A DNA stretch of 64,000 nt from an uncultured Dehalococcoidia bacterium (GTDB lineage: Bacteria > Chloroflexota > Dehalococcoidia > Lucifugimonadales > Lucifugimonadaceae): contig OY282385.1 in assembly GCA_958295935.1 (NCBI GenBank), forward strand, positions 2,521,545 through 2,585,544. The letters run 5' to 3'. Under the pieces are notes generated by a model. The model was not told the DNA's origin, ran no database searches, and saw nothing but the letters and a program-made list of their open reading frames with translations. Shown one piece after another: positions 13,573 through 56,533 of the stretch (positions are counted from its first letter, which is position 1; every line of letters starts with the position of its first letter). A program made the position numbers and the translations under genes.

Positions 13573-13670
13573 GGGAGTGGATGGGTCCCGGTGGGCTTCA
13601 CGGACTTCAAATCCGCTGGCAGGCTGCCTTCGCCGTCTGCGGAGGGTTCGACTCCCTCGCACTCCCGCCA
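13573..13670 (+). tRNA. selC: tRNA-Sec (anticodon TCA)
   Basis: A 98-base selenocysteine tRNA with CCA encoded. The acceptor stem GGGAGTG pairs with CACTCCC, followed by discriminator G and CCA. The anticodon loop CTTCAAA carries TCA and is closed by CGGA/TCCG. The variable arm is long (GCAGGC ... GTCTGC, with a TTCG inside), and the T arm is GAGGG-TTCGACT-CCCTC. Long variable arm, TCA anticodon and G73 together identify tRNA-Sec, which reads UGA through SelB. The eighth acceptor pair expected in bacterial tRNA-Sec would be a G-G mismatch here. No selA, selB or selD is in the window. Confidence 0.92.
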
Positions 13671-13854: not shown

Positions 13855-15258
13855 ATGGCTGAAACTGACAGGGGCCTCGTTGCGCACCTGATGCGCAGAG
13901 CGGGGTTCGGCGCGACACAGGACGAGCTGGACGAGCTCACGGCCAAGCCGTACGAGCAGATGGTCGACGACCTTCTTCACCCGGAGCGTTTTCCGGAGGT
14001 TGACGACATTCTTCTGCGCCGCTACTACCTGGAGCTCAACAATCCGGATACGCACGGCACCTGGCAGGCTCATTGGATCTACCGGATGGTGAATACGAAG
14101 CGGCCTCTTCAGGAGAAGATTGCGCTTTTTTGGCACCACGTCTTTGCGACTTCGATAGGCAAGAGCGAGCATACGCCGTCTGCGGTGGCTCAGATCGAGA
14201 CGTTTCGGCGGAACGGTCTTTCGGATCTGCGTACTATCTATCTGGACCTTGCTCGCGACCCGGCTATGTTGTTCTGGCTGGACAACTGCGAGAACCACTC
14301 CGGTGAGCCCAACGAGAACTGGGGCCGCGAGTTGCTGGAGCTTTTCTCGATGGGTGTTGGCAACTACACGGAGCAGGACATCAAGGAGGCTTCGCGGGCG
14401 TTTACGGGATGGACGTTCGTGCAGCCGCTTCCCCTCGATCCGTACTCCCGTTATCCGTCTGAGTTTCTCTACCTGCCCGGCGACCACGACGACGGGGAGA
14501 AGACGTTCCTGGGCCACACCGGTCGATTCACCGGGCAGGACATCATCGACATCGTGGCGGCACAGCCTGCGACTGCGAATTTCATCTCTCGACACCTGTA
14601 TAACTTCTTCGTGTCTGACGAGCCTCAGGTACCGGCCTGGAGCATAGTTCCGCCGCAGGATCCGGAGGCGATAGAGGTCTTGGCCGATGCGTGCCGGAGT
14701 TCGGGCGGGAGCGTGCGCGAAATGCTGCGGGCGCTGTTTCTGTCGGACTTCTTCAAGGCGGCGCGCTTCAAGAAGGTCAAGAGCCCTGCGGAGCTGGTTG
14801 CCGGCGCGATCAAGTTATCGGGTATGCACCGCGATCCTCAGCCTGGTTTGGGGGATCTTTCGGGTGCGACGGCGGTGATGGGTCAATCCCTTCTGACTCC
14901 GCCCACTGTGGAGGGCTGGCACACGGGTCGTGAGTGGATAGACGCGGGCACGCTGAACGAGCGCGTCAATTTTGCGGTGGATCGTCTGTCAGATCCTGAA
15001 ACGCCTGGAATCCGGCGCATCATCGACCGTCTGGAGTGCGAGGGCAGCCCACTTTCGCCTGACAGATTCGTTGACACGTGCCTCGATCTTGCCGGGCCTG
15101 TGGAGGCCAGCGAGGACACCCGGAAGCAGTTGCTGGAGCATGCGGCGCAGGGCGGCGACCTCGACTTCGAGACCGAGAGGGGCCGCGAGCGCAGCGCTGA
15201 GCGCGCGGTGCGTATGATTCAGGCGGTCGTATCGTCAGTGGAGTACCAGTTCGCCTGA
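13855..15258 (+). CDS. DUF1800 family protein
   Basis: A 467-residue DUF1800 protein. The N-terminal LMRRAGFGAT is the family signature, followed by FWHHVFAT, LDNCENHSG, GRELLELFSMG and AFTGWTF blocks and a C-terminal PTVEGWHTG. Biochemical function of the family is not known. DUF1800 genes are typically followed by DUF1501 genes, as here. No signal peptide is evident, unlike many family members. The start ATG gives exactly the same length as the minus-strand paralogue in this window; an upstream ATG would add 15 residues. The two copies are closely similar along their whole length. Confidence 0.93.
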   Translation: MAETDRGLVAHLMRRAGFGATQDELDELTAKPYEQMVDDLLHPERFPEVDDILLRRYYLELNNPDTHGTWQAHWIYRMVNTKRPLQEKIALFWHHVFATSIGKSEHTPSAVAQIETFRRNGLSDLRTIYLDLARDPAMLFWLDNCENHSGEPNENWGRELLELFSMGVGNYTEQDIKEASRAFTGWTFVQPLPLDPYSRYPSEFLYLPGDHDDGEKTFLGHTGRFTGQDIIDIVAAQPATANFISRHLYNFFVSDEPQVPAWSIVPPQDPEAIEVLADACRSSGGSVREMLRALFLSDFFKAARFKKVKSPAELVAGAIKLSGMHRDPQPGLGDLSGATAVMGQSLLTPPTVEGWHTGREWIDAGTLNERVNFAVDRLSDPETPGIRRIIDRLECEGSPLSPDRFVDTCLDLAGPVEASEDTRKQLLEHAAQGGDLDFETERGRERSAERAVRMIQAVVSSVEYQFA

Positions 15259-45356: not shown

Positions 45357-47213
45357 ATGGCAAATATGACAGACAAGCGCGCGGTCAGCTCGACTCTGCA
45401 AGGCATCCGCGCCAGGCTCGGCCTGACGCGGGAGCGTCTCGCGGAGCGTCTTGGGGTTTCCTTTGCCGCGGTGAATCGCTGGGAGGATGGCGGGGCGATG
45501 CCCCGCAAGGTGTCTCGGACGGCCATCGCCGCGCTTGCCGCGGAGGCAGGCATAGAGGTCGTTGCCGGCGTCCGTTCGTCCGTCGATGGAAGCGAGGCGG
45601 CGTCCCGCGTGACCCGTCGTCGGTCCCGCAGGCGCCAGGCCGCGGTTCCATCGACCAAGCCCATGGAGCAGATGCTGTGGGATGCGGCCTGTTCCATCCG
45701 GGGCCAGAAAGACGCGTCCAAGTTCAAGGACTACCTGCTGCCTTTGCTCTTCCTCAAGCGTCTTTCGGACGTCTTCGACGACGAGATGGCGCGCCTGGCC
45801 AAGGAGTTAGGCGGCATAGAGTCGGCCAAGGAGATAGCGGAGGACGACCACGAAGTGCTGCGCTTCTACCTGCCTTTGGAGGCGCGCTGGTCGGTCATCA
45901 GCGGGCGGGAAGGCCACGATTGGCCTGACGACGAATGGGGGCAGAGCACGCGTCCGAGGGACATAGGCGACCATCTGACCAAGGCGGTCAGGGCGGTCGT
46001 CAAGCGGAACCCCACTCTTTCGGGGGTGATCGACCTGGTGGACTTTGCGGAGGAGCGCAACGGGGTGCGCGACATCGACGCGGCTCGGCTGTCCGCGGTC
46101 GTCGAGACCTTCAGCGATCCCCGCTACCGGCTTGGCCTCGACGACGTTCAGCCGGACTTCCTGGGGCGCGCCTATGAGTACCTTCTCAGAAAGTTCGCGG
46201 AGGGATCCGGTCAGAGTTCGGGAGAGTTCTTCACTCCGACGGAGGTCGGATTTCTGATGGCGCACCTGATGCGGCCCAAGTCTGGCGAGCGCTGCCACGA
46301 CTACGCCTGCGGCTCTGCCGGACTGCTCATCAAGCTTCAGTTGGCGGCCCGTGAGCTCGACCCTGCGAGCCGCGGGGTTCCGCTCAAGCTGTACGGTCAG
46401 GAGTTGCAGGCGGACAGCTACGCGGTGGCCCGCATGAACGCCGTCATCCACGACATGTCGGAGGTTCAGATCGAGCGCGGCGACACGATGACAAGCCCGA
46501 AGTTCCGGGACGCTTCCAGCCGGATTGCGACCCACGACGTCGTGGTGGCCAATCCCATGTGGAACCAGAATTTCGACTCCGGCGTCTTCGTGAACGACCC
46601 GTTCGACCGTTTCCGCGCTGCGGGCGGCATCACCACGGGGAAGGGGGACTGGGCCTGGCTTCAGCACACTCTGGCGTGTATGAACGAGCGCGGTCGTGCG
46701 GCCGTGGTGCTGGACACCGGCGCGGTGACGCGCGGCTCGGGGGCGAAGCACGAGGACAGGGAGCGGAACATCCGCAAGTGGTTCGTCGAGCGGGACCTGA
46801 TCGACGGCGTGATCCTGCTGCCGGACAACCTCTTCTACAACACCAGCGCGGCGGGCATCATCGTGGCGCTATCGAAGCGCAAGCCGGCGGCGCGGCAAGG
46901 GAAGATCGTGCTTCTGAACGCCAGCCGGAGGGTGCGCAAGGGCCGGCCCAAGAACTTCATTCCGGAGGAGGACATACGCCCGTTGGCGGATATGTTCCTG
47001 AAGGGCGAGCCGGTGGAGGGCGAGGCGGCGGTCATAACGCGGGAGCAGGCTAAGGAAGCGGACTACAACCTGAGCCCTAGCCGATGGGTGGGGCAGGGGG
47101 ATGCCGTCGTCCAGCGTCCGATCAGGGAGATCATTGCGGAGATGCGGAGTCTCGATGAATCGGCCCGCGAGATCGACGTTCGGCTGAAGGACATGTTGGC
47201 GCGTCTGCAATAG
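45357..47213 (+). CDS. hsdM: Type I restriction-modification system methyltransferase HsdM with N-terminal HTH
   Basis: A 618-residue protein. Residues 12-60 are an Xre-like helix-turn-helix ([20 protein letters not shown]). After a basic linker comes the HsdM N-terminal helical domain ([16 protein letters not shown]), then the methyltransferase: [16 protein letters not shown], the AdoMet site [12 protein letters not shown], and motif IV as [10 protein letters not shown] instead of the usual NPPF/Y. The HTH could bind the own promoter and regulate the operon (inference). It is the first gene of a long operon containing hsdS, hsdR and several inserted defence-type genes. Its 3' end is copied in a chimeric gene downstream. 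Confidence 0.93.
47003..47090 (+). repeat. hsdM 3'-end segment duplicated downstream (copy 1)
   Basis: This part of hsdM (encoding [16 protein letters not shown]...SPSRWVG) recurs at 47810-47889 with few changes and a 9-base deletion. It marks a recombination junction. Confidence 0.8.
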
Positions 47214-47249: not shown

Positions 47250-47627
47250 ATGGGAGCGACGCACGTGACCGTAGCCATACGCAATCCGGCGCAGCCGGAT
47301 CGGACTTGGGAGGGGCTGTTCCTGGTCGATACGGGGGCGACGGATTCTCTGGCGCCCAGGTCGTGTCTGGAAGCCATCGGCCTTGAGCCGAGGGGTCGGC
47401 GAGTGTACGAACTGGCGGACGGCAGCGAGCTGGTTCTGGACGTCACGGTTGCGGAGATCGAGTTCATGGGTGAGGTGGTCGGGGGTACTGTCATCATGGG
47501 TTCGGACGATGCGGAGCCGCTGCTTGGGGTGACGGCTCTGGAATCGGTGGGCATTGTGGTAGACCCTCTGAACCAGCGTTTGAAGAGGCTGCCGGCGGTG
47601 CGGCTCAAGGGGCTGGGTATTCGATGA
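47250..47627 (+). CDS. Retropepsin-like aspartic protease
   Basis: A 125-residue single-domain aspartic protease-like protein. The active-site motif is LFLVDTGATDSLAP with Asp27, and the C-terminal part has LLGVTALESVGIVVD, equivalent to the hydrophobic-hydrophobic-Gly segment of retropepsins. One domain implies a homodimer. It lies between hsdM and a chimeric ORF, with an ATGA overlap, so it is part of the operon. Function in restriction is unknown; it could process a partner protein or act as a toxin-antitoxin component. Confidence 0.82.
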   Translation: MGATHVTVAIRNPAQPDRTWEGLFLVDTGATDSLAPRSCLEAIGLEPRGRRVYELADGSELVLDVTVAEIEFMGEVVGGTVIMGSDDAEPLLGVTALESVGIVVDPLNQRLKRLPAVRLKGLGIR

Positions 47628-48016
47628 ATACAGCGCGGGCAAGGCGTCCTATTGGGGAGTTGTGCGACCTGATCGCAGAGCCGGTCAGGCCGGGCACTCG
47701 ACCGGATGCGCTCTATCTGGGGCTGGAGCATCTGGCGTCTGGGCGGCTGGTTCGGATTGGCGGCGGTCAGGCGTCGGAGATGCGAAGCAGTACGTCGGCT
47801 GGCGTGAGGGGTGAGCCGGTGGAGGGTGAAGTCGCGGTGATAACGCGGGAGCAGGCGGACTACAAACTGAGCCCTAGCCGTTGGGTGGGTACAACCGGGG
47901 CCAACGACGAAGAGTCCTTGAATAACCTAGTTGACGCGCTCGGGTCTATCTCGGTTACAGAAAGCTCACTTGATAACCAGATCACGTCAACTTTCAATAC
48001 AGTGGAACGCATGTAA
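47624..48016 (+). CDS. Chimeric ORF: HsdS N-terminal fragment fused to an HsdM C-terminal fragment
   Basis: A 130-residue frame. Residues 1-58 resemble the start of a specificity subunit (PDALYLGLEHLASGRL, SEMRSST), while residues 63-89 ([27 protein letters not shown]) match the end of HsdM encoded upstream. The last 40 residues are of lower GC and resemble the helical HsdM tail. The frame is intact with ATGA and TAATG overlaps to its neighbours. It is probably a recombination product between two hsd loci, kept in frame by chance or because coupling is needed for hsdS translation. Confidence 0.75.
   Translation: MNTARARRPIGELCDLIAEPVRPGTRPDALYLGLEHLASGRLVRIGGGQASEMRSSTSAGVRGEPVEGEVAVITREQADYKLSPSRWVGTTGANDEESLNNLVDALGSISVTESSLDNQITSTFNTVERM
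47810..47889 (+). repeat. hsdM 3'-end segment, copy 2, inside the chimeric ORF
   Basis: Second copy of the hsdM tail segment found at 47003-47090, lacking nine bases relative to it. Confidence 0.8.
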
Positions 48017-49254
48017 TGGTCTCGGAGATTATCCCAAGCAACTGGGCATTGTATTCTATTGCTGGGCTCAACGTAGGTGAAGTGAGTATGCTTAATCCAA
48101 CCAAATTTCCGGACGAAGAATTTGAATACTACAGTATTCCTGCTTATCAAAATGCAGAAACACCAGAGATGACGAAAGGGCGCGACATCCTCAGTCAGAA
48201 ATTGCTGATCCCTGAGGTGTGCGTTCTTTTTGGTAAGTTGAACCCGCGCGTGGAAAAAGTATGGAATGTCAAGTCGTACAATCCTTCTCGGCGCATAGCA
48301 TCCACCGAATGGCTTCCTATTATGCCCAAGCCAGGTATCGACCAAGATTATGTCTATTTCCTCATGCACTCCAAATGGGTGATGCCAATTGCGCAAACCC
48401 TAGTTTCGGGATCCACACCAAGCCGCCAGCGAGTCGATCCTGATGCATTTTATAAGATACTTGTTCCAGTACCTGAGTTAGACGAGCAACAGGCGATCAG
48501 TGCGGCACTCAGTCAGGTGCGCGACGCAATCGGGGTACAGGGCCAGAGCATTGCGGTCGCACAGGATTTGAAACGCGCGGCGATGCGGACGCTGTTCACG
48601 CGGGGCCTGCGGGGTGAGGCGCAGAGGGAGACGGAGATCGGGCCGGTGCCGGAGAGTTGGGAGGTGGTGTCTATTGAAAATTCAATTCGGCCCTATAGGT
48701 TCAATCGCGGCATACAGGTGCCCAGATCAGCTTATGCGACAACAGGGACATGGCCAATTATCGATCAGGGACAAGAATTCATTGCAGGTTATATCGACGA
48801 CCAGAAACGAATTGTCCGGCCCGAATGTCCGATCATTATTTTTGGAGACCATACCCGGGTATTTAAATTTGTGGATTTCGATTTCGCATTAGGAGCAGAT
48901 GGAACGAAACCACTCCTGGCCGAGGACGGATTTGACTCTAAATATCTCTATTATTCATTTAGCAACCTGGATGTCCCTTCGAGAGGCTATAATCGTCATT
49001 ACCGTGTATTGATTCAAATGCACATTAAGAAACCATCACTCGCAGAACAGCAAGAGATCGCTGCCATCCTCGAAGCCATCGACCGTAAGATAGACTTGCA
49101 TCGGCGCAAGCGCGCTGTGCTGGAGGAGTTGTTCAGGGCGCTGCTGCACAAGCTGATGACGGGTGAGATACGGGTGGGGGAGCTGGGGACGGTGGGAGCG
49201 GGGGAGAATAGCGACGACCAAAAGGCACCCGAACCGATAGGGGATCTGGTATGA
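48016..49254 (+). CDS. hsdS: Type I restriction-modification specificity subunit HsdS
   Basis: A 412-residue HsdS with two target-recognition domains, each followed by a conserved helix region: first ELDEQQAISAALSQVRDAI, then SLAEQQEIAAILEAIDRKID with the end LEELFRALLHKLMTGEIRV. The second domain starts at IGPVPESWEVV. The recognition domains (about 48020-48470 and 48675-49040) are AT-rich relative to the conserved helices, the usual sign of domain exchange. It determines the sequence recognised by both HsdM and HsdR. Its start overlaps the preceding stop (TAATG), and its end overlaps the next gene by four bases. Confidence 0.93.
   Translation: MVSEIIPSNWALYSIAGLNVGEVSMLNPTKFPDEEFEYYSIPAYQNAETPEMTKGRDILSQKLLIPEVCVLFGKLNPRVEKVWNVKSYNPSRRIASTEWLPIMPKPGIDQDYVYFLMHSKWVMPIAQTLVSGSTPSRQRVDPDAFYKILVPVPELDEQQAISAALSQVRDAIGVQGQSIAVAQDLKRAAMRTLFTRGLRGEAQRETEIGPVPESWEVVSIENSIRPYRFNRGIQVPRSAYATTGTWPIIDQGQEFIAGYIDDQKRIVRPECPIIIFGDHTRVFKFVDFDFALGADGTKPLLAEDGFDSKYLYYSFSNLDVPSRGYNRHYRVLIQMHIKKPSLAEQQEIAAILEAIDRKIDLHRRKRAVLEELFRALLHKLMTGEIRVGELGTVGAGENSDDQKAPEPIGDLV
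49117..49187 (+). repeat. hsdS 3'-end segment duplicated downstream (copy 1)
   Basis: Encodes LEELFRALLHKLMTGEIRVGEL; recurs at 51078-51147 fused to a nucleotidyltransferase fragment. Confidence 0.8.
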
Positions 49255-50888
49255 GATTCAAGAGAGCTACGATCAAGGACTTCAAGCGGTTCACGGACTT
49301 AACCGTTCACAACATTCCAGAAACGGCTCGCCTGATTATGCTAGCCGGTCCGAACGGGAGCGGCAAATCATCATTCTTCGATGCTTTGCATATTTGGGGT
49401 GAATCAAAATCCGGGCGCTCCTCTACCTGGGAGGCTGAATACCATGCGAAGAGATATTCTCCGGAGCTTGGTCATGCCAATTGGAATGACCGAATCCAAA
49501 CAGAGTTACATGAGGACCTTCCGGACAATGTCTATGACAACAGGAAGACTTTCTACATCAGATCTGCGTATAGAAACGATCCTGAATTCCTCATAGGTAA
49601 TCTTATGCGCCAAGGAGACCCTCTGGATCAAATCCCAGTTAGGCGTATGATCGACAACGACGCGAGTGTAAGTCGGAACTACCAGAAGCTGGCTAGCAAA
49701 GGCTTTGAAGATTTATATGAGCAAGGCGACGGATCGACGACATTCACTAAATACCGGAAGGAAAGCATCGGGGATATTCGAGATGCTTTGTGCCAATTAT
49801 TTCCTGACTTGAAGCTGAATGGCTTGGGAAATCCTTTGCACGATGGCACTTTCAGATTTACCAAGGGTGTAAGCCAAGGGTTCGTCTATAAAAACCTATC
49901 TGGGGGAGAGAAGGCTGCGTTCGACCTTATCTTGGATATGGTCATCGCTCGACGCGATTACGACGACACTCTCTATTGTATTGACGAGCCTGAATCGCAC
50001 ATGAATTCACGCCTTCAAGCGGAACTTCTATCAGTTCTGTATGGCCTCATCCCCGGAAAGTGTCAATTGATGTTGGCTACGCACTCTATTGGTATGATGC
50101 GACGCGCGCGGGATATTGGAAAAGAGAATCCTGGGACCGTGGTATTTCTTGACTTTGGAAACCATGATTTCGACCAAAAGATAGTGATTGAACCAACCAA
50201 GCCGGATCGAACTTTCTGGAAAGCTGTTCATGAGGTCGCGCTAGATGATCTGGCAGCACTTATTGCTCCAGAAAAAGTGATTATCTGCGAGGGTGAACCG
50301 AAGAGTACAAATATCAAACGGAACTACTCGCATGATGCGCGTTGCTATGACCAAATCTTCAGCGACGAATTTCCAGAGGCGCGATTCGTTCCTGGAGGCA
50401 ATGATCGTGAAGTAGCAGAGGACAAACGTGGTATCGAGTATACGCTTGGTACATTGACCAAGGGCACCGAGGTCGTCAAACTTATCGACCGAGATGCCAG
50501 ATCTCCTGAAGAGGTTATCGATTTAGGGGAGGACGGCACTCGGGTGCTGTCACGGCGCAACTTGGAGTCTTACCTCTTTGATGACGAGGTTCTTAGTGCG
50601 CTTGCGGCGTCGGTTGGCAAGAAGGACAAGATCAAGGCGCTTCTCGCGAGGAAGGAAGCTATCCGCTCTGCAAGACCCAACGACGCCCCCGACGACCTCA
50701 AGCCAGCCAGTGGTGAGATTTACCTCGCGTGTAAGGGTATTCTGAGCCATCCCAATCCCGGAAACGACGCAAAGTCATTCATGCGCTATACGCTGACCCC
50801 GCTCGTCAAGCCTGGGATGGACGTGTACAAGGAACTGAGGCGTGACATCTTCGGCCCGGATGATGGCGACGTTTCGCAGATGGATTAG
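49251..50888 (+). CDS. AAA ATPase with TOPRIM/DUF4435-like C-terminal region, defence-type
   Basis: A 545-residue SMC/OLD-type ATPase: Walker A GPNGSGKSS near residue 33, ABC-like signature LSGGEKAAF near 219, Walker B LYCIDEPE near 244, and the H-loop ATHS. The C-terminal part (from about residue 340) has IICEGEPKS, KLIDRDARS and SRRNLESYLF, a pattern like TOPRIM or DUF4435 nuclease domains. It thus resembles OLD/GajA proteins, or a fused form of the two PARIS proteins. It overlaps hsdS by four bases (ATGA). Codon GC is lower than that of hsdM, suggesting acquisition. Probably senses phage and degrades nucleic acid. Confidence 0.78.
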   Translation: MRFKRATIKDFKRFTDLTVHNIPETARLIMLAGPNGSGKSSFFDALHIWGESKSGRSSTWEAEYHAKRYSPELGHANWNDRIQTELHEDLPDNVYDNRKTFYIRSAYRNDPEFLIGNLMRQGDPLDQIPVRRMIDNDASVSRNYQKLASKGFEDLYEQGDGSTTFTKYRKESIGDIRDALCQLFPDLKLNGLGNPLHDGTFRFTKGVSQGFVYKNLSGGEKAAFDLILDMVIARRDYDDTLYCIDEPESHMNSRLQAELLSVLYGLIPGKCQLMLATHSIGMMRRARDIGKENPGTVVFLDFGNHDFDQKIVIEPTKPDRTFWKAVHEVALDDLAALIAPEKVIICEGEPKSTNIKRNYSHDARCYDQIFSDEFPEARFVPGGNDREVAEDKRGIEYTLGTLTKGTEVVKLIDRDARSPEEVIDLGEDGTRVLSRRNLESYLFDDEVLSALAASVGKKDKIKALLARKEAIRSARPNDAPDDLKPASGEIYLACKGILSHPNPGNDAKSFMRYTLTPLVKPGMDVYKELRRDIFGPDDGDVSQMD

Positions 50889-50951
50889 CGCGATCGGTGT
50901 GCTCTACGTCTGGGCTAGCAGTGAGTGCTGGCAGAAAGTGAACGTGGATCA

Positions 50952-51191
50952 ATGAATTCAGAGCTGGCGCTTCGTAGGGATGCTGTTGCGGCATTCTGCC
51001 GGGAGCGCGGGATCAAGCGGTTTGCTATCTTTGGCTCGGCGCTGCGGGATGACTTTGGGCCGGAGAACGATATAGACGTGCTGGTGGAGTTGTTCAGGGC
51101 GTTGCTGCACAAGCTGGTGGTGGGTGAGATACAGGTGGGGGAGCTAGGTTTGGCGGCGGTGGATAAGCAAAGCGTGGGGGCGGGTTTATGA
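50952..51191 (+). CDS. Chimeric ORF: nucleotidyltransferase fragment fused to an HsdS tail
   Basis: A 79-residue frame. Residues 1-45 are the start of a Pol-beta minimal nucleotidyltransferase with the metal motif FGSALRDD and ENDIDVLVE. Residues 46 onward (LFRALLHKLVVGEIQVGELG) match the C-terminal end of HsdS encoded 2 kb upstream. The nucleotidyltransferase is cut after its second motif, so it is unlikely to be active. The ATG at 50952 fits the family start; a longer reading is possible. The stop overlaps the TIR gene by four bases (ATGA). Confidence 0.7.
   Translation: MNSELALRRDAVAAFCRERGIKRFAIFGSALRDDFGPENDIDVLVELFRALLHKLVVGEIQVGELGLAAVDKQSVGAGL
51078..51147 (+). repeat. hsdS 3'-end segment, copy 2
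   Basis: Second copy of the HsdS tail segment at 49117-49187, in frame with a truncated nucleotidyltransferase. Confidence 0.8.
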
Positions 51192-52366
51192 CGGAGTCGA
51201 TGGCTCGACCGGCTTTTGCGTTATACGTCGCTTGGCACCCAGACTATGTAAGAGGAGCAGCGATTGCTGAGAGACTTTTACATCACTTTCGCTCCCACCG
51301 TTGCCGCGATATCGTTGGCGGAGCCGGTGTATCGGTACTCTTCCGAAGCGCCAATGCCCCCGGTCTTGAAACGCCGCTATCCATTGAGTGGGGTGATGCG
51401 GAGGTTACAGCGGTGGTCGTGCTGATCGACGATATGCTCGTGGGCGACCCTGAGTGGGTACGGTACGTTCAAACACTTGTGAGCGAGGCTGCCGCCGGGA
51501 GATCTGGCGCTCGCGTATTTCCCGTCAAAATGGAGCCTGGGGTCCTTGGTATGGACCTTGACGTACAGGCGGTACTTTGGGATCGCTGGGCTGGAAGTGA
51601 CGCAGCGAAAAAGCAGCGGTTAATCCGAGATCTCACTTATGAATTCATCCGGATGCTTAGGCACCACTTGGGAAGTCTCCAGCATTCAGAAGATCCGGAC
51701 GTTTTTAAAAATCGCCTGAAGAACATCAGTGTCTTCCTCAGTCATTCCAAGCACGACGAATACGGAGAGACAGTCGCAGAATCTATTCGTGAATGGCTTT
51801 ACCGTAACAGTTTGGTGAAGAATTTCCTTGACGTCTATGATATTCCAGCGGGTCTGTCATTCACCTCTGTGATAGATCATTTCATAAATGTTGGAGCGCT
51901 CTTAACTATCTACACTGACTCTTATTCTTCTCGGCCATGGTGCCACTATGAAGTTATAACGGCTAAGCGCAACAATATCCCCATGCTGGTCGTGGACTGC
52001 CTGGAGGGAATTGACGGGCGTGCCCTGCCATATCTCGGGAACGTGCCGGTTATTCGAATGGATCCCAATCTCATGGATCGGGTCGAACAGATCGCGGGCT
52101 TACTGCTTGAGGAGGTATTCAAGCACTTCCTTTGGCGATGCCGCGTAGAGAGAATGAGATGGTCCCATCCACAAATCATCTTTCTGGCGCGCCCGCCGGA
52201 GCTGATTTCTCTTGCGGCCTTACCGCGTAGCGAGAGTGAAGGCAACCGAGTGATTGTTTATCCTGATCCTCCGCTCGGCGCCGAGGAGACCCGCCTTCTA
52301 TTGGACGCGGGTGTTGATGTATGCTTGTTTAGCCTAACGCAGTGGCAAGGAGAGGCCGGAGCATGA
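51188..52366 (+). CDS. TIR-domain protein with two TIR-like domains
   Basis: A 392-residue protein. Residues 10-125 form a divergent TIR-like domain (FALYVAWHPDYVRGAAIAERL, AVVVLIDDMLVGD). Residues 178-300 form a clearer TIR domain: ISVFLSHSKHDEYG, FLDVYDIPAG, and RPWCHYEVITAKR, in which Glu255 is at the catalytic position of NAD-cleaving TIR domains. It overlaps by four bases (ATGA) a gene for a SLOG-like protein. In known systems such as Thoeris a TIR enzyme makes a signal from NAD that a SLOG domain senses. By analogy this TIR protein is the likely sensor/signal producer (inference). Confidence 0.82.
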   Translation: MTESMARPAFALYVAWHPDYVRGAAIAERLLHHFRSHRCRDIVGGAGVSVLFRSANAPGLETPLSIEWGDAEVTAVVVLIDDMLVGDPEWVRYVQTLVSEAAAGRSGARVFPVKMEPGVLGMDLDVQAVLWDRWAGSDAAKKQRLIRDLTYEFIRMLRHHLGSLQHSEDPDVFKNRLKNISVFLSHSKHDEYGETVAESIREWLYRNSLVKNFLDVYDIPAGLSFTSVIDHFINVGALLTIYTDSYSSRPWCHYEVITAKRNNIPMLVVDCLEGIDGRALPYLGNVPVIRMDPNLMDRVEQIAGLLLEEVFKHFLWRCRVERMRWSHPQIIFLARPPELISLAALPRSESEGNRVIVYPDPPLGAEETRLLLDAGVDVCLFSLTQWQGEAGA

Positions 52367-53181
52367 GCCTGACGGGCACTCAAGGGCAAAATGTCATTGC
52401 TATCTCGACGTCGGATAGCCCTGACATGGCCCACTTGGGGCTAAGCGCGAGCCACCTACAAGAGGCGGTGGCGGATTTTGCCATCTATCTCCTGGCATCT
52501 GGGGCGAGCCTCTCATACGGCGGCGACCTGCGGCGTCGGGGTTTCACAGAGTTGCTCTTCGACTTGGTTATGCGCTACCGGCAGCAAGAGGAGACCGGGG
52601 TGCGGGTGACTGACTACCTAGCTTGGCCAGTCCACATCGGTATCGCAGCCGATGACTTGCATGAGCATAACGCTAATCTTGTAGAGTTCGCTCGACTCGT
52701 ACTCATCGGACAAGACGGCGGTCGAATGTCTATGGAAGACCGCCAAGCGCTTGCGTCACGTGAACCCACTGATGATGAATGGTCAGCAGGGCTAACCTCT
52801 ATGCGGCAGGTCATGCGTAGGGAAACGACCTCTCGGATAGCGCTTGGCGGGCGGGTGGAGGGCTACAAGGGGGCTATGCCAGGTATTGCAGAGGAATCGT
52901 TGCTGTCACTTCGAGCTGGCCAACCGCTCTTCCTGATCGGCGGGTTCGGGGGTTGCACGCGGGATATTGCGGAAACTGTAGGGCTTGTGGATGCTTGGTC
53001 CGGCAACAGTCGGACCTGGTGCGGTCGCGAATGGTTCGAGCCTTACGAACCGGAGGACTTGCACAATGGGCTCTCCACTGAGGAGAACCGTGTGCTTGCG
53101 AGTACGCCGCATATCGATCAGGCCGTATCCTTGGTCATGATGGGTTTGCATAGGTTGGGCAACGGCATCACTGCGACTTAA
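52363..53181 (+). CDS. SLOG-domain-like protein, TIR partner
   Basis: A 272-residue alpha/beta protein. The N-terminal half resembles a SLOG Rossmann-type domain: ISTSDSPDMAHLGLS, AIYLLASGASLSYGGDLRR and GFTELLFDLV. In the second half, PLFLIGGFGGCTRDIAE is a second nucleotide-binding-like loop. No catalytic nuclease or membrane segment is seen, so this protein would bind a nucleotide signal rather than act alone, unless the effector activity is in an unrecognised part. The ATG overlaps the TIR stop and follows AGGAGAGG. Tight coupling suggests stoichiometric production with the TIR protein. Confidence 0.72.
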   Translation: MSLTGTQGQNVIAISTSDSPDMAHLGLSASHLQEAVADFAIYLLASGASLSYGGDLRRRGFTELLFDLVMRYRQQEETGVRVTDYLAWPVHIGIAADDLHEHNANLVEFARLVLIGQDGGRMSMEDRQALASREPTDDEWSAGLTSMRQVMRRETTSRIALGGRVEGYKGAMPGIAEESLLSLRAGQPLFLIGGFGGCTRDIAETVGLVDAWSGNSRTWCGREWFEPYEPEDLHNGLSTEENRVLASTPHIDQAVSLVMMGLHRLGNGITAT

Positions 53182-53311
53182 AACTGAATCACCAGCCCCT
53201 TTGTTCTATGGAATCTTGTTGAAGCAGCATTTCTCGATCGCGGTAGATGTGAATATGACTTGAGCCGGCGAATGAGGCGAGCTAATTCATAGAAGGAACG
53301 CCGTCCCCACC

Positions 53312-53494
53312 ATGCCCCCTGATCAAATTACAGCCACAGCCACCTCCGGCGAGTTGGGGACGCTGGGTTTCAAGGAAACCACCGGGACGCGCCGCAACTC
53401 CTCGACTTGCGCCAGGTGCCAGCCTATGAGAATTCGCTTCGTGGGCATTAACAGTTACCATCGCGTCTTCAGCGCTGGTCATATCATTGGCTAG
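53312..53494 (+). pseudogene. Remnant of an AlbA_2/Schlafen-like DNA-binding protein
   Basis: The first 35 codons read QITATATSGELGTLGFKET followed by TGTRRNS, similar to the beginning of AlbA_2-type proteins (ESETLEFKETTG...). Similarity is lost after STCARC and the frame ends 25 codons later. Genes for AlbA_2 proteins are common inside type I loci, so this is probably what remains of one. The remaining part of the 340-base gap between the SLOG gene and hsdR shows nothing else. Confidence 0.4.
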
Positions 53495-53524: not shown

Positions 53525-56500
53525 TTGACGATCATGCGAATTACGGAAGCGGGTACGGCGCAGTTCCCGATGGTTCGCCATGCGTCGGAGGTCGGCTGGA
53601 TTTCCTTGTCACCGCAGGAGGCCCTTGCCTTGCGGGGAGGGACTGGCGGGATGCTGTTTCGGGGCGTGCTTGAGGGGACGCTTCGCCGATTCAACCGTTG
53701 GATGTCGGACGACGCCATCCGTTCCGTAATCGAAGAGCTGCAGGCTCTTCGGCCGACTATCGAGGGCAACCGCGAGATGCTGTCCTGGATGCGCGGCGAG
53801 CGGTCACGGTATGACGAGGCGGAGCGTCGTCGTCGTCGGGTAGTGTTGATCGACTTCGAGGACACGGGGGCTAACGCCTTGCACGTCACCTGGGAGTGGC
53901 GACTCACGCCCCTGGCGCGCAAGGGCAGCCGTGCGGACGTCATGTTCCTGGTGAACGGCTTGCCGGCGGCCATCGTCGAGCACAAGAATCCGATGGACCG
54001 CGATGCCATAGAGCGGGGCGTTACGCAGCTGCAGCGCTACGAGCGGGAGACGCCCGAATTGCTGGGGTCGGCGCAGTTGTTCAACGTGACCCACGCGCTG
54101 GACTATTGGTACGGCGTCACGTGGAACATATCCCGCCGGTTCATGGCTCGCTGGAAGGAGCGCGCTGAGGATAGCTACCGGTTTGCCGTCCAGTCGTTCT
54201 TCGAGCCGACCGATTTTCTGCGGACTCTGCGCGACTGGATTCTCTTCTACGTGGAGGACGGGGAGACGCGAAAGTCCGTGCTGCGTCAGCACCAGCGTCG
54301 CGCGGTGGATCTCATTGTGGACCGCTGCGCCGAGCCGGTGAAGCGGCGCGGCCTGGTCTGGCATACCCAGGGATCTGGCAAGACGTTCACGCTGCTCACG
54401 TCCGCCCGTTTGATCCTGGAAAGCAAGGATCGTTTTGGTGCGGCGACGGTGGTGGTGGTGGTGGACCGCGCCGAGTTGGAAGGCCAGCTTGCGCAGTGGG
54501 TCGAGCGGCTGTTGGGCGAAATGCAGGGGCAGGCCATACCGGTATGGCGCGCCGACTCCAAGGACAAATTGCGGGAGCTGTTCGAGACGGACAAGCGCGG
54601 CTTGATCATCTCGATGATCCACAAGTTCGAGGGCATCGAGAAGGACGCCAACGTTCGCGACAGCATCTACGTGTTCATCGACGAGGCGCATCGCTCGGTG
54701 GCCAGAGATTTGGGCACGTATCTCATGGCGGCGCTGCCGAATTCGACCATCATCGGATTCACCGGCACGCCTGTTGCGCGAACGGCGCATGGGGAAGGAA
54801 CCTTCAAGATATTCGGGTCCGATGACGATCAGGGTTACCTGGACAAGTACTCGATAGCGGAGTCGATCGAGGACGAGACGACCCTTCCGATCCGCTACAT
54901 GATGGCGCCTAGCGAGATGACCGTGCCGGCGGAGCGGCTCGAAAAGGAGTTCTTCGCTCTGGCAGAGACGGAAGGCGTCACGGACGTCGATGAGTTGAAC
55001 CGCGTGCTGGACAGGGCGGTGGGGCTGCGTACCTTTCTGTCGGCGGACGATCGGATCGCGAAGGTTGCGGAGTTCGCGGCCGAGCATTTCAAGGAGAACG
55101 TGGATCCGCTCGGCTACAAGGCGTTCTTGGTCGCGGTGAACCGTGAAGCCTGCGCCAAGTACAAGCGCGCGCTGGACGAACTGCTGCCGCCGGAGTGGAC
55201 CGCGCCGGTCTACACGGCGAATGCCGATGACGCGGTCAAGCGGCCGTTGGTGGCGGAGCTACAGCTCTCATCCGAGCGCGAGGCGGACGTTCGGATCGCG
55301 TTCAAGAAGGCGAACGAGAACCCGAAGATACTCATCGTTACGGACAAGCTTCTGACCGGCTACGACGCGCCGAACTTGTACTGCATGTATCTCGACAAGC
55401 CGATGCGCAATCACGTGCTGCTCCAGGCGATAGCGCGGGTCAATCGGCCTTACGTTGACGCTAAGGGCCGCTCCAAGCCCATCGGCCTGATCGTGGACTT
55501 CGTGGGCGTGCTGCGCGAGTTGAGAAAGGCTTTGCAGTTCGACTCGTCGGACGTGAGCGGGGCGATCCAGGACCTCGACCTGCTGATGGGGGACTTTCGA
55601 TCCAAGATCGCCGAGGCGAGGGCGGAATATCTGGATGATCGGATTGATCGCGCAGAAGATCCAAGGCAGATCTCCGAGTTCAAGTCTCCATTTGACCTCC
55701 CCAGCGAGAGCGCAGACCGCCGTCTGGAGCGGACGGTGTACAAGCGTTTTCTCGAGCCCAAGGCGCGGGAGGAGTTCTTCGAGGTCTACAAGGGCGTCGA
55801 AACGCTGTGGGAGATACTCTCTCCATCAGCGGAATTGCGGGATCAGGTCGACACGTTCAAGGGCCTAGCCCAGCTCTACGCGGCTGTGCGGAGTGCGTAT
55901 GCGAGCCGGAGCATCTTCGAGTCGGATCTTGCGCTCAAGACTCAGCGCCTGGTCGAGAGCGGAGCCACTATGGAGGGTCTTGGGCAGATCACGAAGGCCC
56001 TTACGTTCGACGTGCGTACGCTGGAAGAGGTCCGGGGCGAGTCGGGCCCGGCCGAGGCCAAGGTGTTCAACCTGGTGCGCGGCCTGGGGCAGGAAGTCGA
56101 GGCCAACCCTGAGATGGAGTCCGTCTTGAGGCCCCTGAAGGAGCGCGCAGACTCCATCCTGAAGGATATGCAAGAGCGCAAGACGACCGAGCTGAAGGCG
56201 ATGGATCAGTTGGCCGCGCTCGTAAGGGAGAAGGAATCAGCCGTCAAGGCAGCGAGCGGCAGCGACCTCTCGCCGCGTGCGTTCGGCTTATATTGGGCGC
56301 TGAAGGACGATGGGAGGCTCCGGGCTGCCGGCGTGAACGCAATGGAGTTGGCGCGGGAAGCCGAATTGCTCTTGGGGCGCTTCCCCAACGCAGCTGTCAA
56401 CGCCGAAGAGAAGAAGCGGCTGCGCGCGGCCCTCTACCGGCCTCTGCTGAAACTGAACAAACACGACCGGCTAGGAGTTGTGGAGCAGGTCATGACTATC

Positions 56501-56533
56501 CTGCTAGGCGGAGGCGGCGATGGTGACGCGTGA
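53525..56533 (+). CDS. hsdR: Type I restriction endonuclease subunit HsdR
   Basis: A 1002-residue HsdR. The N-terminal nuclease domain has [11 protein letters not shown] and AAIVEHKNP, giving the Asp and the Glu-x-Lys of the PD-(D/E)XK motif. The helicase part has [11 protein letters not shown] near residue 283, FIDEAHRS near 390 and GFTGTPVA; the second lobe has LTGYDAP and AIARVNRPY. The C-terminal 300 residues are helical and bind the methyltransferase. A TTG start with AGGA at 7 bases is used; an ATG three codons later is the alternative. It translocates and cuts unmodified DNA with HsdM and HsdS. Confidence 0.94.

What the first reader, a model, noticed from the sequence alone, without database searches (positions are those of the whole stretch)
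51188..53181. TIR-SLOG two-gene module inside a type I restriction operon
A protein with two TIR-like domains (the second with Glu255 at the catalytic place) overlaps by four bases a stand-alone SLOG-like protein. In Thoeris the SLOG domain is attached to a SIR2 NADase and senses a TIR-made signal. Here no SIR2, protease or membrane effector is fused, so either the SLOG protein has a new effector activity or it controls another operon member, such as the AAA-TOPRIM protein or HsdR. This is my best candidate for an undescribed system.
Basis: partly seen in the sequence, partly recalled or inferred. Interest (0 to 1): 0.85.

Follow-up and report, generated by a model that had tools for sequence, protein, structure and literature searches.

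The report
Thoeris-like TIR-SLOG pair missing its trigger
A two-gene bacterial anti-virus module related to the Thoeris immune systems sits inside a DNA-restriction operon; close relatives carry a third gene that probably makes its activating signal, and here that gene is reduced to a stump.

Summary
The pair is real. P0002 (52363-53181) is Pfam SLOG cluster2 (PF18163, E 3.3e-70). P0001 (51188-52366) carries one certain TIR domain with an invariant Glu255; a second, N-terminal TIR is not shown. They overlap by four bases. Relatives occur in five named phyla and in the window's own; four are single fused proteins. Only one of 20 tested loci shares the window's hsd genes.

In 16 of 22 related loci a ThsB-type TIR gene lies nearby. 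The intact orthologous operon of a same-phylum genome reads hsdM-hsdS-TIR-SLOG-ThsB-Schlafen-hsdR. The window keeps only the last ~32 codons of ThsB and the start of the Schlafen gene, so 'two genes, no partner' is a deletion product.

Best reading: TIR-SLOG is a signal-gated NADase effector and ThsB makes the signal. In the window it is orphaned, or served by ThsB genes elsewhere in the genome. The SLOG seems to keep ThsA's ligand residues, but that alignment is weak. The kind is known: SLOG-TIR systems are in print, and Thoeris type III pairs a TIR protein with a SLOG cluster3 protein. This is a SLOG cluster2 variant. Activity is untested.

The parts
51188..52366 (+). TIR protein (392 aa): unassigned N-terminal domain plus catalytic-type TIR domain (182-273) with Glu255
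   Evidence: PF13676 E 3.4e-9; E255 in 15 of 15; 56% identical homologue in L030
52363..53181 (+). stand-alone SLOG cluster2 protein (272 aa), putative nucleotide-signal sensor
   Evidence: PF18163 E 3.3e-70; R148 14/14, position 164 K 8/R 5/V 1, E177 14/14
53194..53292 (+). 3' stump of a ThsB-type TIR gene (residues 170-201 plus stop); about 500 bp of the gene are missing before it
   Evidence: tblastn 21/32 identities, E 3e-7; local score 95 against a maximum of 34 in 500 shuffles
53291..53404 (+). 5' stump of a Schlafen AlbA_2 gene that is complete in L030
   Evidence: tblastn 20/38 identities, E 2e-4; local score 77, no shuffle control
45357..47213 (+). HsdM of the host type I R-M operon (context)
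   Evidence: PF02384 E 3.7e-74; 77.5% identical in L030
48016..49254 (+). HsdS (context)
   Evidence: PF01420 E 2e-11; PADLOC Specificity_I E 7e-60
49251..50888 (+).
   Evidence: PF13304 E 1.4e-17; AriAB-like in PADLOC E 1e-22; lies between two copies of the HsdS tail
50925..51191 (+). chimeric ORF: nucleotidyltransferase N-terminal half fused to a second copy of the HsdS C-terminal tail
   Evidence: PF01909 E 1.4e-6; tail matches HsdS residues 368-396
53525..56533 (+). HsdR (context)
   Evidence: TIGR00348 E 1.1e-129; 74.5% identical over residues 1-930 in L030, where the stretch ends

Best explanation
The pair is the effector half of a Thoeris-like module. In intact relatives a ThsB-type TIR protein presumably senses infection and makes an ADP-ribose-derived nucleotide. 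The SLOG cluster2 protein binds it. The SLOG-associated TIR protein (Glu255) then destroys NAD+ and aborts infection, so the TIR takes the place that SIR2 has in ThsA. SHOWN by sequence: family identities, conserved TIR-SLOG coupling and fusions, a nearby ThsB in most relatives, an invariant catalytic-type Glu, loss of ThsB in the window. INFERRED: the ligand residues, the nucleotide signal, complex formation, NAD+ cleavage, phage defence. In the window the copy has lost its own signal maker, so it is either inert or driven in trans by one of seven other ThsB_TIR genes of the genome.
For: TIR homologue directly upstream or fused in 21 of 22 related SLOG2 loci, some of them broken. Single-chain TIR-SLOG fusions in Gloeothece, Priestia, Aureispira and G727. 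All 9 plasmid records found with P0001 (E 1e-15) are among the 11 found with P0002 (E 1e-5). ThsB near 16 of 22. Intact operon L030 and intact TIR-SLOG-ThsB in G824, same family as the window. E. coli layout hyp-ThsB-ThsB-TIR-SLOG in the two records looked at. ThsA contacts R371/K388/E403 fall on R148/R164/E177 by motif register. A homologous SLOG is fused to a patatin lipase inside a Thoeris type III locus. Seven PF08937 genes elsewhere in G000.
Against: No activity is tested. The link from SLOG2 to ThsA and ThcA is weak: hhalign E 0.045 and 0.028 with probabilities under 2%; the SLOG2 profile scores neither (E 31 and 28 at Z=1000) and does not find ThsA in the PDB at E 10. The link to ThcB4 covers only its TIR domain (hhalign adds a weak stretch before it), not the N-terminal domain. 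In Thoeris types I, II and IV the TIR makes the signal (PMC12847820, passage), so which TIR is effector here is a guess. L017 and L037 carry TIR-SLOG with no clean ThsB within 10 kb, so ThsB may not be obligatory. The ThsB tally uses a profile built largely from the same loci. The structure models are unusable.
Confidence: 0.55

Rival explanations
1. The window copy is simply decaying. Both ORFs are still open because the loss of ThsB is recent, and the pair does nothing now. This concerns the window copy only and is compatible with the main explanation for intact relatives.
For: ThsB and Schlafen stumps; duplicated HsdS and HsdM ends nearby. The stump still matches G824's ThsB tail at 21 of 25 residues (counted by eye), so the loss looks recent and open ORFs prove little. 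Other copies are also broken: L003, L005, L006, L010, L038, and the SLOG of L002 is in two frames.
Against: TIR and SLOG of the window are open and keep the invariant residues. Seven ThsB_TIR genes elsewhere in the genome could act in trans.
Confidence: 0.4
2. The P0001 TIR is itself a signal maker (like ThsB) and the SLOG senses that signal and switches another operon product.
For: Such TIR proteins are filed with signal makers: PADLOC ThsB1|ThsB PDLC00434 matches ThcB4 at E 2.9e-71 and P0001 weakly at E 0.0092.
Against: No other gene recurs next to the pair as ThsB does. Fusion into one chain and ThsB next door suggest that TIR and SLOG act as one unit.
Confidence: 0.18
3. The SLOG is an enzyme, not a sensor: it processes or clears the TIR product, as LOG-type SLOG enzymes act on nucleotides.
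For: SLOG enzymes and sensors share the fold, and viral SLOGs are proposed to degrade signals (PMC9503650, passages read). The E177-E178 pair is invariant in 14 of 14.
Against: Close coupling and fusion to the TIR and possible ThsA-like contact residues fit a sensor better, but do not exclude an enzyme.
Confidence: 0.14

Closest known systems
Thoeris type III (NCBIfam ThcB4 NF058526 + ThcA NF058525)
   Same: A protein of about 380 aa with a TIR domain, followed directly by a stand-alone SLOG, in a locus with ThsB-type TIRs (L036). The P0001-family profile detects the TIR domain of ThcB4, E 2.6e-6 with Z=1000 (hhalign E 2.7e-5).
   Different: ThcA is SLOG cluster3 (PF18180), P0002 is SLOG cluster2. 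P0001 scores 25.5 bits against a cut-off of 220; P0002 has no NCBIfam match at E 1. The N-terminal domains are not detectably alike.
Thoeris type I (ThsA SIR2-SLOG + ThsB)
   Same: A SLOG family (STALD) that weakly matches the fused SLOG2 of Priestia (E 4.1e-5, 23.6 bits against a cut-off of 24), a ThsB-type TIR partner in relatives; one type I copy (L044) also sits behind an hsdS-like gene.
   Different: No SIR2; the catalytic candidate is a TIR, and SLOG and effector are mostly separate genes.
SLOG-TIR systems predicted by the Aravind group
   Same: SLOG-TIR systems are named as nucleotide-signal immunity (PMC7824862, PMC9503650, passages read).
   Different: The source paper (Burroughs et al. 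2015, recalled) is not held, so I could not see whether this gene trio is drawn there.
SLOG-patatin effector in L036
   Same: N-terminal SLOG homologous to P0002 (hhalign E 9.8e-13, 217 columns).
   Different: Effector is a phospholipase (patatin, CBASS_lipase model), not a TIR.

Membership tests
Pfam SLOG cluster2 (PF18163) | score above curated cut-off | tested here: met
   237.1 bits against 25.3
Catalytic TIR domain | TIR profile above cut-off and the catalytic Glu | tested here: met
   37.7 bits against 28; E255 15/15
Catalytic TIR domain | NAD+ cleavage | not testable with these tools
   needs an assay
Thoeris type III | ThcB4 above curated cut-off | tested here: not met
   25.5 bits against 220
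Thoeris type III | ThcA above curated cut-off / SLOG cluster3 | tested here: not met
   no NCBIfam hit at E 1; ThcA is PF18180, P0002 is PF18163
Thoeris type III | TIR gene directly followed by a stand-alone SLOG gene | tested here: met
   same order in L036
Thoeris type III | additional TIR genes in the locus | tested here: not met
   window: only a ThsB stump; present in 16 of 22 relatives
Thoeris type I | SIR2-SLOG ThsA | tested here: not met
   no SIR2 match in P0001 or P0002 at E 1
Thoeris type I | ThsB next to the effector | tested here: not met
   only a stump in the window
Thoeris type I | 3'cADPR-contact residues R371, K388, E403 | tested here: inconclusive
   R148, R164, E177 by motif register and well conserved, but the underlying profile alignment is weak (E 0.045; no signal)
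Thoeris in general | anti-phage activity through a TIR-made nucleotide | not testable with these tools
   needs phage and nucleotide assays

The most novel reading that the evidence does not exclude
TIR-SLOG cluster2 modules are a separate Thoeris type with a TIR-to-TIR relay: a ThsB-type TIR makes a nucleotide, and a SLOG-gated second TIR is the killing NADase. In the window organism the pair has lost its own ThsB and listens to ThsB proteins of other loci, so one signal maker serves several effectors.
Probability: 0.3. Interest if true: 0.68.

Novelty: new variant of a known kind. Interest (0 to 1): 0.45.

Why it matters
If right, it adds a third SLOG class to the Thoeris sensors (STALD in ThsA, cluster3 in ThcA, cluster2 here) and predicts a TIR acting as effector rather than signal maker, gated by a separate SLOG subunit. 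In E. coli, 12 of 5,426 genomes hold a match over the TIR gene and part of the SLOG gene, and both records I looked at carry the whole set with two ThsB genes, so it can be tested in laboratory strains. It also shows how a gene pair that looks like an odd two-gene system can be the remainder of a larger one.

Tried and rejected
Structure: AlphaFold2 on 7-row and 6-row alignments gave pLDDT 53.9 and 48.9. The Foldseek search of the SLOG model gave nothing at E 0.001; BcThsA appeared at rank 28, E 0.20, which I do not use. I did not search with the P0001 model.

Sequence search against solved structures found no credible relative of P0002, alone or as a profile, ThsA included. The P0001-family profile found TIR proteins among 38 hits (best 4lzp_B, deposited without a name, E 7.7e-8; 4c7m, a TIR domain protein, E 5.4e-6).

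A control role over HsdR or the AAA ATPase was rejected because neither recurs next to the pair in the loci tested. Phage origin: no match to P0002 in 50,697 phage records at E 1e-5; one IMG/VR contig, L008; a second scan with the alignment confirmed none.

N-terminal TIR: not supported. Strict Thoeris type III membership: rejected on cut-offs.

Papers: 10 searches, of which I saw listings. 'SLOG cluster2', 'LD_cluster2' and 'PF18163' occur in 0 papers; 'ThcA' with 'Thoeris' in 0. I saw passages only of PMC9503650, PMC7824862, PMC7159879, PMC10022894, PMC11204291, PMC12847820, PMC13232231, PMC13373217 and PMC12390725. A paper on 12 E. coli TIR systems, cited in PMC12847820, was not among the rows listed to me (some lists were cut); it may already include this system.

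Full report
1. What is there. P0001 (51188-52366, 392 aa) and P0002 (52363-53181, 272 aa) overlap by ATGA. P0002 is Pfam SLOG cluster2, E 3.3e-70, far above cut-off; P0001 has a TIR_2 domain at 182-273, E 3.4e-9, above cut-off. PADLOC has no match for P0002 at E 1 and only weak ones for P0001 (ThsB1|ThsB E 0.0092, PDC-S66 E 0.013). In 15 aligned sequences (P0001 and 14 others) F183, S185, H186, D215, W251 and E255 are invariant. L003, L006 and L010 were left out of that alignment as broken; L037, L038, L042, L046 and L048 were found later and are not in it. The N-terminal 170 residues are conserved but not shown to be TIR (E 0.15).

2. How general the pair is. I collected 22 distinct SLOG2 loci outside the window. 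L003 and L004 are merged (two contigs of one MAG), L042 and L043 are merged (same E. coli island), sub-loci of the same place are dropped, and L036 is left out because its SLOG is fused to a lipase. The TIR gene lies directly upstream, or is fused, in 21 of 22; L038 keeps only its tail. Several of the 21 are damaged: L003 a fragment with an internal gap, L006 in two frames, L010 split by an IS. Four are single TIR-SLOG chains: L012, L014, L019, L037. A search of 72,556 plasmid records with P0002 found 11 records (E 1e-5); a search with P0001 found 9 (E 1e-15), all among those 11. The 11 lie in Pseudomonadota, Cyanobacteriota, Actinomycetota, Bacillota and Bacteroidota. The window's own phylum is unnamed to me; from genome sizes I guess Chloroflexota. 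Frequency is low: 2 of 400 genomes of the phylum, the window genome being one of the two; 4 of 369 in the class of G400, counting G400 itself and G676, whose SLOG is the lipase-fused one; 3 of 149 relatives including the window genome. In E. coli 12 of 5,426 genomes have a 74% match covering 51% of the query, the TIR gene and part of the SLOG gene (near mode, so a lower bound).

3. The missing gene. In L030, from the same-phylum genome G033, the operon is HsdM (77.5% identical), HsdS, TIR (56%), SLOG (62%), a 201-aa ThsB_TIR (PF08937 E 9.5e-21), a Schlafen AlbA_2 protein and HsdR (74.5% over the part held). DNA anchors show that the window follows L030 to position 14545, jumps to 15047-15175, then to 16737: about 500 bp of ThsB and about 1.3 kb of the Schlafen region are absent. 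What is left of ThsB is residues 170-201 and the stop (21 of 32 identical, E 3e-7; local score 95 against at most 34 in 500 shuffles of the stump). What is left of Schlafen is its start (E 2e-4). G824, same family as the window, has TIR-SLOG-ThsB intact, with a tail that matches the window stump at 21 of 25 positions (counted by eye). A partial gene in the window and whole genes in relatives mean loss in the window rather than gain elsewhere. Two separate losses within about 400 bases argue against an assembly slip but do not exclude it.

4. ThsB as the third component. With a ThsB profile, plus PF08937 for L012 (about 3.9 kb away across the plasmid origin, my arithmetic), 16 of 22 loci have a ThsB near: L002, L003/4, L008, L009, L011-L016, L018, L019, L030, L042, L046, L048. 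The profile was built from 14 ThsB proteins, 12 of them from these loci, so this is a tally of presence, not an independent test. In L048 the match is on the other strand about 3 kb away and starts at profile position 22. Without: L005 (ThsB ends after about 30 positions, SLOG in several frames), L006 (SLOG truncated), L010 (TIR split; no PF08937 match on the plasmid at E 0.01), L017 (clean ThsB 13 kb away; weaker PF08937 matches, still over the cut-off, inside large ORFs at 4 and 7 kb, which would make it 17 of 22), L037 (nearest other PF08937 match 69 kb away; only 3.8 kb of flank held) and L038 (none in its genome). Four of the six exceptions are visibly damaged, but so are two loci that keep ThsB (L002, L003/4), so damage and ThsB loss are not tightly linked. 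L017 and L037 count against ThsB being obligatory.

5. Ligand residues. In BcThsA R371, K388 and E403 coordinate 3'cADPR (PMC10022894, passage read). L044 is a ThsA (6lhx E 4.4e-150). The alignment puts these residues at R375, K392 and E407 of L044 (numbers counted by me), and the profile comparison puts those on R148, R164 and E177 of P0002. Across 14 SLOG2 sequences: R 14/14; K 8, R 5, V 1; E 14/14. Against it: the comparison is weak (E 0.045, probability 1.2%), the SLOG2 profile gives no signal for ThsA or ThcA and does not find ThsA among solved structures at E 10. For it: the STALD model, which covers ThsA's SLOG, matches the Priestia SLOG2 at E 4.1e-5, just under its cut-off. I treat it as a motif argument only.

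6. Relation to known systems. L036 holds a Thoeris type III by NCBIfam: ThcB4 E 1e-135, ThcA E 3e-73, in the order TIR, ThsB, ThsB, SLOG-patatin, ThcB4, ThcA, and a last gene that looks TIR-like (weak model hits only). ThcA is SLOG cluster3. The SLOG on the patatin is homologous to P0002 (hhalign E 9.8e-13; PF18163 E 9.5e-9). P0001 and P0002 do not reach the type III cut-offs. The window pair is therefore a parallel arrangement with another SLOG class. SLOG-TIR systems as such were predicted earlier (passages in PMC7824862 and PMC9503650; their source, Burroughs 2015, is recalled and not held).

7. Mechanism. Thoeris pairs a ThsB nucleotide maker with an effector carrying a sensor domain (PMC11204291, passages read). 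Fusion, gene order and the ThsB neighbour point to TIR-SLOG as that effector; the ligand residues would fit. The catalytic TIR and the pocket are inferred from sequence. In the window the pair may be dead or may use one of seven PF08937 genes elsewhere in the genome; only an experiment can tell.

8. The R-M setting. Only L030 of 20 loci tested with the window's Hsd proteins shares the hsd context (L037 and L038 not tested, L046 only 3.6 kb), so it looks like the insertion site and not part of the system. A similar site behind an hsdS-like ORF (by eye) holds a type I Thoeris in L044. In the window a further insert, the AAA ATPase plus half a nucleotidyltransferase, lies between two copies of the HsdS tail.

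Noticed in passing
49117-51185: The AAA ATPase gene and the N-terminal half of an MNT-type nucleotidyltransferase lie between two copies of the HsdS C-terminal tail; the half-gene is fused in frame to the second tail copy. L030 lacks the insert.
   Followed up: partly
47624-48016: Short ORF containing a duplicated fragment of the HsdM C-terminal end (tblastn 36% over residues 539-618).
   Followed up: no
47250-47627: Clan AA aspartic protease gene (TIGR03698) between hsdM and hsdS; a fragment of the same gene persists at L030:11142-11252.
   Followed up: no
L027 (G000 494-502 kb): Cluster of four ThsB_TIR matches with a P-loop NTPase (KAP-like by eye) and an AAA ATPase (by eye); no SLOG2 found there by my profile. 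Possible source of signals in trans.
   Followed up: partly
L028:8578-8973 and L029:6670-7059: Short ThsB_TIR-like genes of about 130 aa, each beside a small membrane-protein-like gene (by eye); L029 also has HsdM and HsdR pieces.
   Followed up: no
L044:336-3629: A type I Thoeris (ThsA SIR2-STALD, ThsB, a TIR-like gene by eye) directly behind an hsdS-like ORF: defence cassettes may recur at this site of type I R-M operons.
   Followed up: partly
L036:5696-7312: SLOG cluster2-like domain fused to a patatin phospholipase inside a Thoeris type III locus; a candidate signal-gated lipase effector.
   Followed up: partly
13573-13670: tRNA-Sec predicted by ARAGORN in the window.
   Followed up: no
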